In this document: positions 51,153 through 56,997 of the stretch, one piece after another
Position numbering within the stretch: position 1 is the stretch's first letter
Layout of the letters: each line of letters opens with the position of its first letter
NCBI RefSeq assembly: GCF_007004765.1
Contig: NZ_VIKR01000001.1
Span: 1,426,001 to 1,490,000, forward strand
Source of the DNA: Aliikangiella marina
GTDB lineage: Bacteria; Pseudomonadota; Gammaproteobacteria; Enterobacterales; Kangiellaceae
Direction of reading: 5' to 3'
Length of the DNA stretch: 64,000 bases
The notes under the pieces: model-generated
What the model was told of the DNA's origin: nothing
The model's database searches: none
What the model saw: the letters and a program-made list of their open reading frames with translations, nothing else
Position numbers and translations under genes: made by a program

Positions 51153-52535
51153 ATGAGTGACTTGATTCGACAACTTAAAGACATTATCGGCGATAATTAC
51201 GTCTTAACAGACAAATCTGATCTGGACAACTATGGCCAAGATTGGAGTCGACTCTATCAACCTGACCCGATAGTTGCGGTTCGACCTGGTTCAAACCAAG
51301 AAGTCGCAGAGATTGTTAAACTGTGTCAAGCAAACAAAGTATCAATCGTCCCATCAGGTGGGCGAACAGGACTTAGCGGCGGCGCGGTCGCGACAAATCA
51401 AGAATTGGTCTTGTCATTAGACCGACTAAATCAGATAGCCAATTTTAACCCAGTCGATCGCACAGTCGAGTGCGGGGCAGGCGTAATCACACAACAGCTG
51501 CAAGACTTTGCCAGTGAAAATGGTCTCTTCTACCCCGTTGATTTTGCCTCTGCAGGTTCAAGCCAGATCGGCGGTAACATCGCTACCAATGCCGGTGGAA
51601 TTAAGGTACTCAAATATGGGCTCACACGTGACTGGGTTGCAGGATTAACAGTCGTGACTAGCGAAGGAGAAATCCTTGAGCTTAATCATGCACTCGTAAA
51701 AAATGCGACCGGCTATGATTTACGCCACTTAATGATCGGCAGTGAAGGTACGCTAGGTATCATAACCCAGGCGACAATGCGTTTAGCTAACCCGCCGCAA
51801 GAACCCACTGTGATGCTACTCGCTGTTAGCGACCTACCCAGCGTGTCTCATTTGTTGGAGCATTTTCAGAGCAATATTGATTTAATGGCATTCGAATTCT
51901 TTTCGCAACAAGCGCTCGAAAAAGTCATGGCACACCGAGAATTAAAAACGCCATTTGCAGACAGCGCTGAATTTTATGTATTGGTTGAATTTGAATGTCC
52001 GGGTGAAGCCGAAATGGAAAAAGCGTTTGCGGCGTTTGAATCGGCTGCTGAAAATGGTTGGTTAGTAGACGGGATTATTAGTCAAAGCAATCAGCAAGCG
52101 GAGGAATTATGGCAATATCGTGAAGGAATTTCCGAATCAATTGCGCATTATCCGCCCTATAAAAATGACATCGCAGTAAAACCATCGCTTGTTGGTGAAT
52201 TCTTGCAACAAGTTGACTCGTTTGTAACGACAAACTACCCTGCTTTTGAAAACATCTGGTTTGGACACATCGGTGACGGCAACCTTCACCTGAATATTCT
52301 CAAGCCGGAAAACATGGACGTAGAAACATTTAAAGAGACTTGCGCCAAGGCAAACCCTGAAATTTTTTCGATTTTAAAAGGATTTAATGGAAGTATTTCA
52401 GCCGAGCACGGTGTCGGATTGCTGAAAAAAGATTATCTAAACTACTCGCGAAGCGATACTGAAATAGCCTTGATGAAGGCAGTTAAAAAAGTTTTTGATC
52501 CAAACAACATTTTAAACCCAGGTAAGCTTCTCTAA
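51153..52535 (+). CDS. FAD-binding oxidase of the GlcD/D-2-hydroxyacid dehydrogenase type
   Basis: A 460-residue flavoenzyme. The N-terminal FAD_binding_4 domain shows SIVPSGGRTGLSGGAVA, DFASAGSSQIGGNIATNAGG and NATGYDLRHLMIGSEGTLGI. The C-terminal FAD-oxidase domain ends FGHIGDGNLHLNI, SAEHGVGLLKKDYL and DPNNILNPGKLL. Family members oxidise D-lactate, glycolate or D-2-hydroxyglutarate, passing electrons to quinone or cytochrome c. The iron-sulfur partner subunits of the glycolate oxidase complex are absent here, which favours a D-2-hydroxyglutarate or D-lactate type enzyme. The stop overlaps the start of the ZIP-like gene by one base. Confidence 0.88.
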   Translation: MSDLIRQLKDIIGDNYVLTDKSDLDNYGQDWSRLYQPDPIVAVRPGSNQEVAEIVKLCQANKVSIVPSGGRTGLSGGAVATNQELVLSLDRLNQIANFNPVDRTVECGAGVITQQLQDFASENGLFYPVDFASAGSSQIGGNIATNAGGIKVLKYGLTRDWVAGLTVVTSEGEILELNHALVKNATGYDLRHLMIGSEGTLGIITQATMRLANPPQEPTVMLLAVSDLPSVSHLLEHFQSNIDLMAFEFFSQQALEKVMAHRELKTPFADSAEFYVLVEFECPGEAEMEKAFAAFESAAENGWLVDGIISQSNQQAEELWQYREGISESIAHYPPYKNDIAVKPSLVGEFLQQVDSFVTTNYPAFENIWFGHIGDGNLHLNILKPENMDVETFKETCAKANPEIFSILKGFNGSISAEHGVGLLKKDYLNYSRSDTEIALMKAVKKVFDPNNILNPGKLL

Positions 52536-53284
52536 TGCTGGCACTAATTGCGTGTATTTTCGCGCTCTTTGTCGGGCCGCTAGTTTATCAAACTTTCGGG
52601 CCACTGCGTCGTACTGACAAAATTGTATCGGGGATCGTCTTAGTAGTGGTTGTCGGTACGATCTTATTTGAGATCATCCCGCAGAGTTACCAAGCAATCA
52701 GTGTTTTTGCGGTGTTGTTGTGCTTAATTGGCTTTGTCGGTCCAACGGTTGTCGAAAAATCGTTTCGCAAAGCCGCTGATACTACTCACAAGTTGACCAT
52801 CTTATTAGGAATCATCGGTCTGCTTTTGCATGCCTTTATTGATGGGATGGCTATCCAAGCGTCAGAGACACCTGAGCTTAATAGTCTTGCGATCGCCATA
52901 ATTCTTCACCGACTTCCAATTGGTTTAACAATATGGTGGCTTTTAAAGCCATTACTTGGAGAGCGTTATGCGCTTGTTACCCTCATTTTAATGGGACTCA
53001 CCACTTTTCTCGGCTATCTATCGAGTCAAGCACTGGATATGATACATAACAGCATGGCGCTTGCTGCCACGCAGGCCTTTATCGCGGGTTCGCTGCTCCA
53101 TGTAGTCATTCATAAACCACATTCTGATGGCTGCATGCACACCTCTCCCGAACATGACCACCATCATCAACCAACCGGTAATGTTAATCAGTCGAAGCAA
53201 GGCGTAATCAAGAATCAATGGGAACTCATTGGTTTTGCACTAGGCGGATTGCTTTTCGCTATGATGTACTTTTATCATCATTGA
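52535..53284 (+). CDS. ZIP-like metal transporter with His-rich loop
   Basis: A 249-residue membrane protein with about seven hydrophobic segments. The metal-binding helices carry LLLHAFIDGMAIQ and IILHRLPIGLTIWW, the HAFIDG/HxxP pattern of the ZIP superfamily. A histidine-rich loop (HKPHSDGCMH and HDHHH near 190-210) is common in zinc and iron carriers. The short length is unusual and family placement is moderate. Coupled to the FAD oxidase gene. It ends just before a kinase/regulator pair, which could hint at metal or redox signalling. Confidence 0.75.
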   Translation: MLALIACIFALFVGPLVYQTFGPLRRTDKIVSGIVLVVVVGTILFEIIPQSYQAISVFAVLLCLIGFVGPTVVEKSFRKAADTTHKLTILLGIIGLLLHAFIDGMAIQASETPELNSLAIAIILHRLPIGLTIWWLLKPLLGERYALVTLILMGLTTFLGYLSSQALDMIHNSMALAATQAFIAGSLLHVVIHKPHSDGCMHTSPEHDHHHQPTGNVNQSKQGVIKNQWELIGFALGGLLFAMMYFYHH

Positions 53285-53391: not shown

Positions 53392-53407
53392 TGGCATGAT
53401 GTCTGCT
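53392..53407 (+). promoter_or_regulatory. Possible sigma-54 promoter of the sensor kinase gene
   Basis: TGGCAT-N5-CTGCT matches the sigma-54 consensus TGGCAC-N5-TTGCW except for one base in each element, at exactly the right spacing and about 30 bases before the kinase start codon. Confidence 0.5.
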
Positions 53408-53426: not shown

Positions 53427-54737
53427 ATGGATTATGCAATGTCGTTTCGTCAACTTAGTTTAATTTTTATTACCGCATTGTTATCAAGCATTATGCTCCT
53501 TCAATGGTGGTCAATAACCTCGTTTAGCCAAGATATTTCTAAGAAGGTTGGTGAGTCAGCCTTTGAAGTCAGTCGAACGACCGCTAAAACTTTAATCTTT
53601 GAACAGCCTAAGGTTGAAGTCGTTTCATATTCCATCGGCAACCAAGTCGTTGAACTCGATACAGCGGTGATGCGTCAGGCGGTATCAAGCATCAAACAAG
53701 ATGTTTTCATTCAGCTCATTGATGAACAAAAGGATGATCATTTAATACTCACCGCTGATCAGCAGCAATGGCAAATACCTATACCTAGAACGGGTATAGA
53801 CGAATCATTAGAGAAGTTTTCACAAAAGGTGTTGTATTCGACGCTAAGTTTTTTAGTCCTCGGCATAGTTTTATCTTTTTTCTTCACATCAAAACTGGCG
53901 ATGCCACTAAAATCACTGCAAGTCGCAGCTCACCAAATCGGCGAAGGTGAATTTGGTACTCAAATAAAAGATGAATCCCGTTGGAACAGTAAAGAAATCA
54001 CCCTGACACTCAATTCCTTTAATCAAATGTCGAAAAAGATCGTAGAACTTCAACAACAAAACGAGACGTTAAAAAACAGAGAACACTTGTATGAAATAAC
54101 CGAAATTTCAAAAGGACTTGCGCACACCATTCGCAATCCATTAAACACACTCAACCTCGCGATAGACGAACTCTCTGAATCGCAGCAAGAAGACAAAAAA
54201 CATGAGTTCACCGTAATCGCTAAAAACCAAATTAAACGCATCGATGGTTGGGTTAAATCACTGATGGATTTGATGACAAGCAAAGACGAGCTGCTTACCC
54301 AGGTTTGTCCTTTAAACATCGTTCAGTCTGTTGTTGATGACTTCAAACTGGCTGACACTAAAGGACTAACATTTGAAATCATCGATAACAACACGCAAGG
54401 GCAGATTAAAGGCGTAGAGAGTGAATTAAAAGGATTAATTCATAGCCTCATTGCTAACGCGGTTGAAGCTTCTCCTAACAAAGAAACAATTCAACTAACT
54501 TTAAGTCAGTCGAATGATAGCTATGAACTTCAAGTAAGAGATCATGGCAGTGGATTTTCTGAAAAAATTCTTAGTAACCTTTTCACACCACACAACACCA
54601 ATAAAACATACGGTGCGGGCATGGGCTTATATTTGGCACATAGAATTAGTAAATATAAATATCAAGGCGACCTCACCGTAGCGAATCAAAAACCACAAGG
54701 AAGCTTAGTAACATTAACTTTCCAGGATAGAGGATAA
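53427..54737 (+). CDS. Membrane sensor histidine kinase
   Basis: A 436-residue kinase with two membrane helices (about 9-30 and 135-155) flanking a 100-residue periplasmic domain, then HAMP-like sequence, a coiled coil, and HisKA with the phospho-accepting H233 in GLAHTIRNPLN. The HATPase domain has the N-box IANAVEAS, G1-box DHGSGFS and G2-box GAGMGLYLAHRI. The periplasmic part is unlike named sensors that I recognise. An ATG four codons later (53439) is an equally good start and would suit the sigma-54-like promoter better. The regulator gene follows four bases after the stop. Confidence 0.88.
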   Translation: MDYAMSFRQLSLIFITALLSSIMLLQWWSITSFSQDISKKVGESAFEVSRTTAKTLIFEQPKVEVVSYSIGNQVVELDTAVMRQAVSSIKQDVFIQLIDEQKDDHLILTADQQQWQIPIPRTGIDESLEKFSQKVLYSTLSFLVLGIVLSFFFTSKLAMPLKSLQVAAHQIGEGEFGTQIKDESRWNSKEITLTLNSFNQMSKKIVELQQQNETLKNREHLYEITEISKGLAHTIRNPLNTLNLAIDELSESQQEDKKHEFTVIAKNQIKRIDGWVKSLMDLMTSKDELLTQVCPLNIVQSVVDDFKLADTKGLTFEIIDNNTQGQIKGVESELKGLIHSLIANAVEASPNKETIQLTLSQSNDSYELQVRDHGSGFSEKILSNLFTPHNTNKTYGAGMGLYLAHRISKYKYQGDLTVANQKPQGSLVTLTFQDRG

Positions 54738-54741
54738 ACAC

Positions 54742-56103
54742 TTGAATAACAGTAGTATAAACCTATTGCTAGTTGAAGATGAAGCAGAACAAAGACTGTT
54801 AATTCGAACCGCTTTAGAGTCGGTAGGCTATCAAGTTGACGATGTTGATTCAGCTGAAGCAGCGCAAAAACAACTCGCTCAAAATAACTACAACATCATC
54901 GTTTCTGACTGGAAATTACCAGGTTTATCCGGCGAAGATTTACTTGAATATGTTAAACAACACTCGCCACAGAGTGGTTTTATTTTGATCACCGCGCATA
55001 GCGATGCTTCACATGCGATAGGAATAATTCGTGCGGGAGCGGATGACTACCTCGCCAAGCCATTTGAAAAGCAAAGTTTACTCTTTGCAATCAATAAACT
55101 GCTGTACACGCAATCGATTGAAGCTGAAAATAATCTACTAAAGAACGAGACAAAACATCGCCAGAAGCTCTTGGAAATGATCGGCCATTCGGCAGCGATG
55201 AATAAGCTATATCAGCGTATAGAAAAAGCGGCTCCAACGTCGGCCACTGTAATGATTACTGGAGAAAGTGGAACCGGTAAAGAACTCGCCGCGAGAGCTA
55301 TTCATCAGCTGTCTAACAGAAAAGATGGTGTATTTCTCCCCGTCAATTGCGCAGCTATCCCGGAGAGTCTTGCCGAAGCAGAATTATTTGGCGCAGAAAA
55401 AGGTGCGTATACGGGTTCTAGTAAAACAAGAATAGGAAAATTTGAAGCTGCTAATCATGGTACAATTTTTCTCGATGAAATTGGCGAGTTACCATTAATC
55501 CTACAAAGTAAACTACTCCGCTTTTTGCAGGAAGGAACAATTACTAGAGTTGGCTCTAACGACGAGATCAAATTAAATGTTCGAGTGGTCACGGCAACCA
55601 ATCGCGATCTCGAAGAAGAGGTGGCGAAGCAAGCTTTTCGTGAAGATCTTTACTATCGACTCAATGTAATTCCGGTAACTATCCCACCACTAAGACATCG
55701 ACAAGATGATTTAGTCCCGCTCATCAATCACTTTATTGAACTGTTTTCTCAACAACACAATGTAACGCCTAAAAAACTTTCCGCGGCAGCTTTCAAAGCC
55801 CTATTGGCCTATGCTTGGCCAGGGAATGTTAGGCAACTTAGAAATGTTATCGAAAGATTAGTGTTACTCTCAATGGATACTGTGATTCAGCTGCAAGATG
55901 TTGAAGACTTAGAACTAAATTCACCTAAAGATATCGATACGTTTTCCCTGCCTGCAAACGGTATCGATTGGGAAAGTCATGAGAAAGATTGTTTGTTACA
56001 AGCGTTAAGTCATTGTAATAATAACCGGACACAAGCAGCTAAACTTTTAAACCTCGGATATAAAGCCTTTCTCTACCGCTTGGAGAAACATGGAATTAAA
56101 TAA
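54742..56103 (+). CDS. Sigma-54-dependent response regulator (NtrC family)
   Basis: A 453-residue regulator: receiver domain with D56 in VSDWKLPG and K107 in LAKPF; AAA+ domain with GESGTGKE (174-181), the sigma-54 contact loop GAYTGS (221-226, usually GAFTGA) and Walker B TIFLDE; and a C-terminal Fis-type helix-turn-helix NRTQAAKLLNLGYKAFLYRL. The start is a TTG with AGGATA upstream; no in-frame ATG precedes the receiver. It forms one operon with the kinase. The only plausible sigma-54 target in the window is the gene right after it. Confidence 0.92.
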   Translation: MNNSSINLLLVEDEAEQRLLIRTALESVGYQVDDVDSAEAAQKQLAQNNYNIIVSDWKLPGLSGEDLLEYVKQHSPQSGFILITAHSDASHAIGIIRAGADDYLAKPFEKQSLLFAINKLLYTQSIEAENNLLKNETKHRQKLLEMIGHSAAMNKLYQRIEKAAPTSATVMITGESGTGKELAARAIHQLSNRKDGVFLPVNCAAIPESLAEAELFGAEKGAYTGSSKTRIGKFEAANHGTIFLDEIGELPLILQSKLLRFLQEGTITRVGSNDEIKLNVRVVTATNRDLEEEVAKQAFREDLYYRLNVIPVTIPPLRHRQDDLVPLINHFIELFSQQHNVTPKKLSAAAFKALLAYAWPGNVRQLRNVIERLVLLSMDTVIQLQDVEDLELNSPKDIDTFSLPANGIDWESHEKDCLLQALSHCNNNRTQAAKLLNLGYKAFLYRLEKHGIK

Positions 56104-56121
56104 TTGCCGAAATCAGTACCC

Positions 56122-56141
56122 ATTTCCCCATATGAGGAAAT
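56122..56141 (+). promoter_or_regulatory. Palindrome, probable binding site of the sigma-54 regulator
   Basis: ATTTCCCCATATGAGGAAAT matches its own reverse complement at 18 of 20 positions. It is centred about 70-80 bases upstream of the sigma-54 -24 element of the secreted-protein gene, the typical distance for an NtrC-type enhancer site. Confidence 0.6.
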
Positions 56142-56199
56142 TACCTGTGATGCGGCAGGCTAAATTACCCGATATACAAGGATTCACCAATTAAAAATG

Positions 56200-56215
56200 T
56201 GGCACGATAATTGAT
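56200..56215 (+). promoter_or_regulatory. Sigma-54 (-24/-12) promoter
   Basis: TGGCACG-ATAA-TTGAT fits the sigma-54 consensus TGGCACG-N4-TTGCW with a single mismatch, at perfect spacing. The start site would be near 56225-56228, leaving a leader of about 45 bases before the ATG of the secreted protein. Confidence 0.75.
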
Positions 56216-56272
56216 AACTTTATATTGAAACCGTTAATCAATATATTTCAATCATATTTTAGGAGCTTTTCA

Positions 56273-56920
56273 ATGATGAAAAAATTAAAAGACACCCTCT
56301 TTGCATTTGCAGTTGGTACCTTTGCAATGTCGAGTTTGGTTATCAGCGCATCCGATCAAGAACCAAAGATGGTGATGATTCAAGTGAATAAATCAAACGA
56401 CGAAAATGCAGTAGTCGACTTAGAAATCGACGGTAACGTCGAAGCGTTTGATTTACCGGAATTGCAAGTTGGAGAGTCTAAATCTATCACGACTCAATCC
56501 GGGAATAATGTTTTGGTCACCAAGACGGAAGAAGGTTTAACCGTTGATGTCGATGGCAAGACGATTAAACTCCCCTCCTTTAGCGGTAATCTTGGTGCTA
56601 GAATTCATGGCTCATCGGCAATCCATCAAATCCACAAAGATACTGTGCAAATTTCTGGCGTTAAGTTAGATGAGACTCAAAAACAAATTATCAAAGACGC
56701 TTTTAAAGCTGCCGGTATTGAGAAAGAACTCTCATTTAATGAACATAGTATCCAATTGGTCAACGTTACTGATGGCTTTCAATTTGTGACTGGTGACAAA
56801 GAATTTGAATGGCATTCAAATGGCGATTCGAATATAGAAGTGATTGTAGAAGGCGATGGAAGCGAAAACGTTGAAAAAATCATAAAAAAGCATATTAAAG
56901 TTAAGAAAAAAGAAGACTAG
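56273..56920 (+). CDS. Secreted protein of unknown function, probable sigma-54 target
   Basis: A 215-residue protein with a signal peptide (MMKKLKDTLFAFAVGTFAMSS, cleavage probably near ISA-SDQ). The mature part is acidic and beta-rich in its first half (VVDLEIDGNVEAFDLPELQV) and ends in a lysine-rich tail (IKKHIKVKKKED). I do not recognise the family. I choose the ATG with AGGAG seven bases upstream; the frame extends 16 codons further but those lie inside the predicted leader. A terminator follows, so it is a single-gene unit driven by the sigma-54-like promoter. Confidence 0.8.
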   Translation: MMKKLKDTLFAFAVGTFAMSSLVISASDQEPKMVMIQVNKSNDENAVVDLEIDGNVEAFDLPELQVGESKSITTQSGNNVLVTKTEEGLTVDVDGKTIKLPSFSGNLGARIHGSSAIHQIHKDTVQISGVKLDETQKQIIKDAFKAAGIEKELSFNEHSIQLVNVTDGFQFVTGDKEFEWHSNGDSNIEVIVEGDGSENVEKIIKKHIKVKKKED

Positions 56921-56946
56921 TCAGTGCTTTTATAGTTAGCAATACA

Positions 56947-56974
56947 AAGCCCGAGATTCTCGGGCTTTTTTTTT
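56947..56974 (+). terminator. Rho-independent terminator, probably bidirectional
   Basis: AGCCCGAG and CTCGGGCT form the stem; nine Ts follow on the plus strand and a weaker T-run exists on the minus strand. It closes the secreted-protein gene and probably also the convergent ggt transcript. Confidence 0.88.
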
Positions 56975-56997
56975 ATATTTTTATTGGATGCTTAACT

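What the first reader, a model, noticed from the sequence alone, without database searches (positions are those of the whole stretch)
56122..56920. Palindromic enhancer plus sigma-54 promoter in front of an uncharacterised secreted protein
A near-perfect -24/-12 element (TGGCACG-N4-TTGAT) and an 18/20 palindrome upstream sit between an NtrC-type regulator gene and a secreted protein with a well-placed ribosome site and terminator. Together with the kinase this is a complete predicted circuit: membrane sensor, regulator, and one exported effector. The layout resembles ZraSR-ZraP in enterobacteria, but the effector is not ZraP-like.
Basis: partly seen in the sequence, partly recalled or inferred. 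Interest (0 to 1): 0.65.

Follow-up and report, generated by a model that had tools for sequence, protein, structure and literature searches.

The report
Sigma-54 circuit driving a secreted protein
In a marine bacterium related to Aliikangiella, a membrane sensor and its partner regulator almost certainly switch on one exported protein of unknown function through a special promoter; the same switch is conserved in many related bacteria, so this looks like an unstudied envelope-response system built like the known Zra system but with different parts.

Summary
The 18/20 palindrome (56122-56141) is the only one of that quality in the window. The -24/-12 element (56200-56215) is unique in the 5.3-Mb genome. 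Ribosome site and terminator are real. In relatives, a -24/-12 element precedes the effector gene in 26 of 27 loci. In relatives where the effector gene has moved away from the regulator gene, enhancer and promoter moved with it. Regulator and effector co-occur in 25 of 27 genomes holding either. A second conserved sigma-54-type promoter (53392-53407) precedes the kinase, so the circuit probably autoregulates. Regulator orthologs in other families of the order keep the same enhancer, mostly between the kinase gene and a divergent gene for another small secreted protein, the zraP/zraSR layout. Kinase and regulator fail the ZraS/ZraR family cut-offs, and the effector matches no Pfam, NCBIfam or PDB entry. 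Best reading: a single-target, ZraPSR-like sigma-54 envelope circuit with an uncharacterised, fast-evolving exported effector. Signal and effector biochemistry are unknown; no transcription data exist here.

The parts
53392..53407 (+). Second sigma-54-type promoter (TGGCATGATGTCTGCT) in front of the kinase-regulator operon; probable autoregulation
   Evidence: A -24/-12 score of 14.5 or more within 200 bp upstream of the kinase gene in 23 of 26 loci versus 0.9% of shuffles; controls FAD 0/11, GGT 0/8, GGDEF 0/9, RR 1/27, ZIP 4/19
53439..54737 (+). Sensor histidine kinase: two membrane helices, periplasmic loop of about 104 residues, HAMP, HisKA, HATPase_c. Start at 53439 (MSFRQ) fits the orthologs better than 53427
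   Evidence: Pfam; ortholog alignment; loop length
54742..56103 (+). NtrC-type response regulator: receiver, sigma-54 AAA+ domain, Fis-type HTH
   Evidence: Pfam; NCBIfam, below the NtrC, AtoC and ZraR cut-offs; orthologs in 26 of 61 relatives
56105..56118 (+). Distal enhancer half TGCCGAAATCAGTA, 20 bp centre to centre from the proximal one
   Evidence: Profile score 9.6; tandem spacing of 19-21 bp in 26 of 27 loci; best-scoring pair in the whole window
56122..56141 (+). Proximal palindromic enhancer (core TCCCCATATGAGGA, 56125-56138)
56200..56215 (+). Sigma-54 -24/-12 promoter TGGCACGATAATTGAT of the effector gene
   Evidence: Unique in the genome; conserved in 26 of 27 loci; 28 of 30 versus 0.5% of shuffles
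56261..56265 (+). Ribosome binding site AGGAG
   Evidence: Sequence
56273..56920 (+). Effector: 215 aa, N-terminal signal-peptide-like segment without a lipobox cysteine, mature part with predicted beta strands; no known family
   Evidence: low-confidence models
56946..56975 (+). Intrinsic terminator after the effector gene, so it is probably a single-gene transcript

Best explanation
A dedicated envelope two-component circuit. The kinase senses an unknown periplasmic or membrane cue and phosphorylates the NtrC-type regulator. The regulator binds the tandem palindrome as an oligomer and, over about 70 bp of looped DNA, drives sigma-54 RNA polymerase at 56200-56215 to make one exported effector. 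A second sigma-54-type promoter before the kinase gene gives positive autoregulation. Inferred only: the effector works in the periplasm as a stress-protective or feedback accessory protein, by analogy with ZraP and CpxP. Supported by sequence and comparison: the pairing of regulator, enhancer, promoter and effector. Not shown: the signal, DNA binding, transcription start, or effector biochemistry.
For: Pfam places HAMP/HisKA/HATPase in the kinase and receiver/sigma-54 AAA+/HTH in the regulator, and rpoN is present. Regulator orthologs separate cleanly from paralogs (E at most 1e-127 versus at least 1e-101). They co-occur with the effector in 25 genomes; one has the regulator only and one the effector only (Fisher p 7e-15, ignoring relatedness). 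Tandem enhancers 19-21 bp apart are found in 26 of 27 loci and the -24/-12 element in 26 of 27. In G005 the effector gene lies on another contig from the regulator gene yet keeps enhancer and promoter, while the old site keeps only the enhancer pair. Regulator orthologs in other families keep the same enhancer before a divergent secreted-protein gene. Control genes mostly lack such promoters.
Against: No expression or binding data. The -12 box lacks the usual C. No enhancer lies near the kinase promoter in the window's own genus, so autoregulation there would need action from 2.7 kb away or another activator. The distal enhancer half is weak in the window. Several genomes of the same family lack both genes, so the system is dispensable. 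The effector's role rests on analogy alone.
Confidence: 0.8

Rival explanations
1. The circuit is real, but the effector is a structural or extracellular protein (adhesin-like, matrix or metal-handling) unrelated to stress protection or feedback on the kinase.
For: The effector has no known family, is predicted beta-rich, evolves fast and stands alone after relocation. A ZIP-type transporter gene lies next door in most loci of the family.
Against: The one-to-one tie to the kinase-regulator pair across several families is typical of accessory proteins. The ZIP gene is not near the module outside the family (L047, L126), and the effector has no conserved Cys or His pattern.
Confidence: 0.3
2. 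The effector is a ligand that docks on the kinase's own periplasmic domain through a shared fold (duplicated sensor domain).
For: Similar beta-hairpin pattern by eye; E/K/R/Q content of loop and effector correlates across 44 loci (rho 0.53), uncorrected for relatedness.
Against: Profile comparison of sensor loop and effector is at noise level (hhalign probability 0.4; controls); lengths do not correlate (rho 0.08).
Confidence: 0.1
3. The effector gene is read mainly from a sigma-70 promoter or by read-through from the regulator gene, and the -24/-12 element is incidental.
For: Weak sigma-70-like matches overlap the region; the effector gene is co-directional with the regulator gene.
Against: 7 sigma-70-like sites found against 9.5 expected by chance. 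The -24/-12 element is conserved, also at relocated copies with no regulator gene upstream.
Confidence: 0.05

Closest known systems
ZraS-ZraR-ZraP (E. coli, Salmonella)
   Same: Kinase plus NtrC-type regulator, sigma-54 promoters for both the kinase-regulator operon and one periplasmic protein (PMC4987338), nearly single-target (PMC8249747). In other families of this order the effector gene is divergent as zraP is.
   Different: Kinase 80 bits against the ZraS cut-off of 479, regulator 328 against the ZraR cut-off of 760. The effector matches no Pfam model above cut-off and has no conserved metal ligands. In this window it lies downstream of the regulator gene, not divergent.
CpxA-CpxR-CpxP
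   Same: Envelope two-component system with a small exported accessory protein as target.
   Different: CpxR is an OmpR-type sigma-70 activator (own knowledge); here the regulator is of the NtrC/sigma-54 class.
Vibrio cholerae Zra2 (VC_1314-1316)
   Same: A Zra-like envelope system whose first gene product is not ZraP-like (PMC10848872).
   Different: Its regulator is given as 158 aa with CpxR similarity (PMC10848872), not a 453-aa sigma-54 activator.
NtrC, AtoC and PEP-CTERM-box regulators
   Same: Best-scoring regulator models (401, 391 and 390 bits).
   Different: All below the curated cut-offs of 559, 714 and 503; gene context differs.

Membership tests
Sigma-54-dependent two-component circuit (NtrC class) | Regulator with receiver, sigma-54 AAA+ and Fis-type HTH domains | tested here: met
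   PF00072, PF00158, PF02954 all above cut-off
Sigma-54-dependent two-component circuit (NtrC class) | -24/-12 promoter with an upstream enhancer at the target gene | tested here: met
   By sequence and conservation:
Sigma-54-dependent two-component circuit (NtrC class) | rpoN in the genome | tested here: met
   497 bits, over the cut-off of 277
Sigma-54-dependent two-component circuit (NtrC class) | RpoN- and regulator-dependent transcription | not testable with these tools
   Needs mutants and start-site mapping
ZraSR-ZraP | Regulator is a ZraR ortholog | tested here: not met
   NF007689 327.6 bits, cut-off 760
ZraSR-ZraP | Kinase is a ZraS ortholog | tested here: not met
   NF007688 80.1 bits, cut-off 479
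ZraSR-ZraP | Target is a ZraP-type zinc-binding periplasmic protein | tested here: not met
   No Pfam or NCBIfam match above cut-off; no conserved Cys or His ligands in the alignment
ZraSR-ZraP | Sigma-54 promoters for both the target gene and the kinase-regulator operon | tested here: met
   By sequence only:
ZraSR-ZraP | Zinc response | not testable with these tools
   No expression data

The most novel reading that the evidence does not exclude
A so far undescribed envelope-response system across several families of this gammaproteobacterial order: orthologous kinase-regulator pair, its own tandem enhancer code, autoregulation, and a rapidly diverging family of exported effectors that protects the envelope or feeds back on the kinase.
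Probability: 0.45. Interest if true: 0.6.

Novelty: new variant of a known kind. Interest (0 to 1): 0.5.

Why it matters
It gives a regulon prediction that can be tested at once: one regulator, one tandem enhancer code, one exported target, conserved in dozens of gammaproteobacterial genomes yet absent from the protein-family libraries searched. If the effector proves to be a stress or feedback protein, it is a Zra/Cpx-like system made from different parts, useful for asking which features of such circuits are essential and why the effectors diverge so fast while regulator and enhancer stay fixed.

Tried and rejected
AlphaFold on nine allowed homologs gave mean pLDDT 41 for the whole protein and 53 for the core. 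Foldseek on the core found nothing better than E 0.06 at TM about 0.25, so no fold is claimed. PDB profile search: best E 0.15. Sensor-loop/effector homology: profile comparison at noise level, per-genome alignments mostly at shuffle level, lengths uncorrelated. A wider regulon in the own genome: the seven other palindromes within one mismatch of the consensus lack a well-placed sigma-54 promoter, and the one other match to the looser consensus has none nearby. Zinc sensing through the neighbouring ZIP gene: the gene is not near the module in more distant relatives (L047, L126). V. cholerae Zra2 as the same system: its regulator is of another class. A scan of named genomes with the wide alignment failed for lack of conserved stretches; with close relatives it returned eight loci. 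Literature searches on Kangiella, Kangiellaceae and Shewanella sigma-54 systems gave nothing on this system.

Full report
What is there. The window belongs to a 5.34-Mb genome from the genus that holds Aliikangiella: same-genus handle G003 has a contig of the same length as Aliikangiella coralliicola scaffold 5. Gene order is FAD-linked oxidase, ZIP-type transporter, histidine kinase, NtrC-type regulator, effector, then a gamma-glutamyltransferase-like gene (GGT) and a GGDEF-type gene on the other strand (the FAD, GGT and GGDEF names are from reading the sequence, not from a family search). The palindrome is the only 18/20 one in the window, and the promoter pattern is unique in the genome. 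A terminator closes the effector gene.

Conservation. Effector relatives occur in 26 of the 61 genomes searched, the window's own included, and in only 1 other of 369 genomes drawn across the class. In most loci they lie directly behind an orthologous kinase-regulator pair, including two other families (G049, G039) where most other neighbours are gone. A -24/-12 element lies 54-163 bp before the effector start in 26 of 27 loci. Upstream of it, a profile learned from these regions shows two copies of TCCYSATATSRGGA, 19-21 bp centre to centre, in 26 of 27 loci. In shuffled regions the median best score is 0.4 and the 99th percentile 9.8, against 16 or more for the better copy at every locus. The profile was trained on these regions, so its scores are optimistic; the fixed spacing was not imposed. 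In the window the distal copy is 56105-56118, the proximal 56125-56138, and the -24 box starts 68 bp after the proximal centre.

Natural experiments. In G005 the regulator is on contig C1 and the effector gene on C32, with its own enhancer pair and promoter. The old place behind the regulator gene keeps an enhancer pair but no effector. In G001 an effector copy on C61 carries enhancer and promoter, while the copy behind the regulator gene keeps the enhancer but lacks the promoter. Enhancer and promoter therefore travel with the effector gene, as expected if this regulator acts in trans. Regulator orthologs (E at most 1e-127) are cleanly separated from paralogs (E at least 1e-101) and share 25 genomes with the effector; one genome has the regulator only (G050) and one the effector only (G006, 82% complete).

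Wider family. A search of 394 genomes of the order found regulator orthologs in 48 genomes of several families; most of these families are not named by the tool. Of 23 loci examined outside the effector-downstream group, 22 have the enhancer between the kinase gene and a divergent gene for a small secreted protein (L136 gave no such gene; for L129 the gene was picked by hand). Most show a second enhancer copy at 19-22 bp, and most have a -24/-12-like element leading into the effector gene, some of them weak. This explains G050. Many of these effectors share a beta-hairpin-like stretch near the mature N-terminus and a C-terminal motif like LSxEQxxxIxxAL. Profile comparison with the Kangiellaceae-type effector gives probability 94% over 36 columns and score 54.8, against at most 14.8 in 60 column-shuffled controls; restricted to short mature sequences it is only 25%. 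Common descent is probable, not proven.

Second promoter. A -24/-12 element also precedes the kinase gene in 23 of 26 loci, against 0.9% of shuffles and 0 of 11, 0 of 8, 0 of 9 and 1 of 27 at control genes (ZIP 4 of 19). In six loci, mostly of one genus, an enhancer copy lies between it and the kinase start. In the window it is 53392-53407, with no good enhancer copy nearby. The circuit is thus probably autoregulated, as described for zraSR (PMC4987338).

Mechanism. Supported by sequence and comparison: which regulator, which DNA sites, which target. Inferred from the established behaviour of NtrC-class activators: phosphorylation, oligomer binding to the tandem site, DNA looping to sigma-54 polymerase. 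Inferred by analogy only: a protective or feedback role for the exported effector. The sensor loop (about 104 residues) shows no conserved metal ligands in the alignment, which argues weakly against direct zinc sensing.

Known or new. The parts are of known kinds, and the layout is that of ZraPSR, but kinase and regulator fall far below the ZraS and ZraR cut-offs, and the effector has no match above cut-off in Pfam or NCBIfam and none of significance in the PDB. No paper found describes it; subscription literature was not searched. I rate it a new variant of a known kind.

Noticed in passing
   Followed up: yes
L034 5493-6125 and L083 4950-4990: Effector gene relocated with its enhancer and promoter in one relative, leaving an orphan enhancer pair behind the regulator gene.
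   Followed up: yes
L082 3311-3970 (minus strand): Same enhancer drives a coiled-coil, proline-rich secreted protein divergent from the kinase gene; shows how far the effectors diverge.
   Followed up: partly
52535-53284: ZIP-type transporter gene with a His-rich stretch (HDHHHH), next to the kinase gene in most loci of the family; reason for the link unknown.
   Followed up: partly
L069 1255-1810 (minus strand): Distant effector-like secreted protein in a genome elsewhere in the class, without the kinase-regulator pair beside it in the 3.3 kb seen.
   Followed up: no
L042, L046, L048, L051, L053, L054, upstream of the kinase gene: Enhancer copy lies downstream of the kinase promoter's -24/-12 element, an unusual position.
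   Followed up: no
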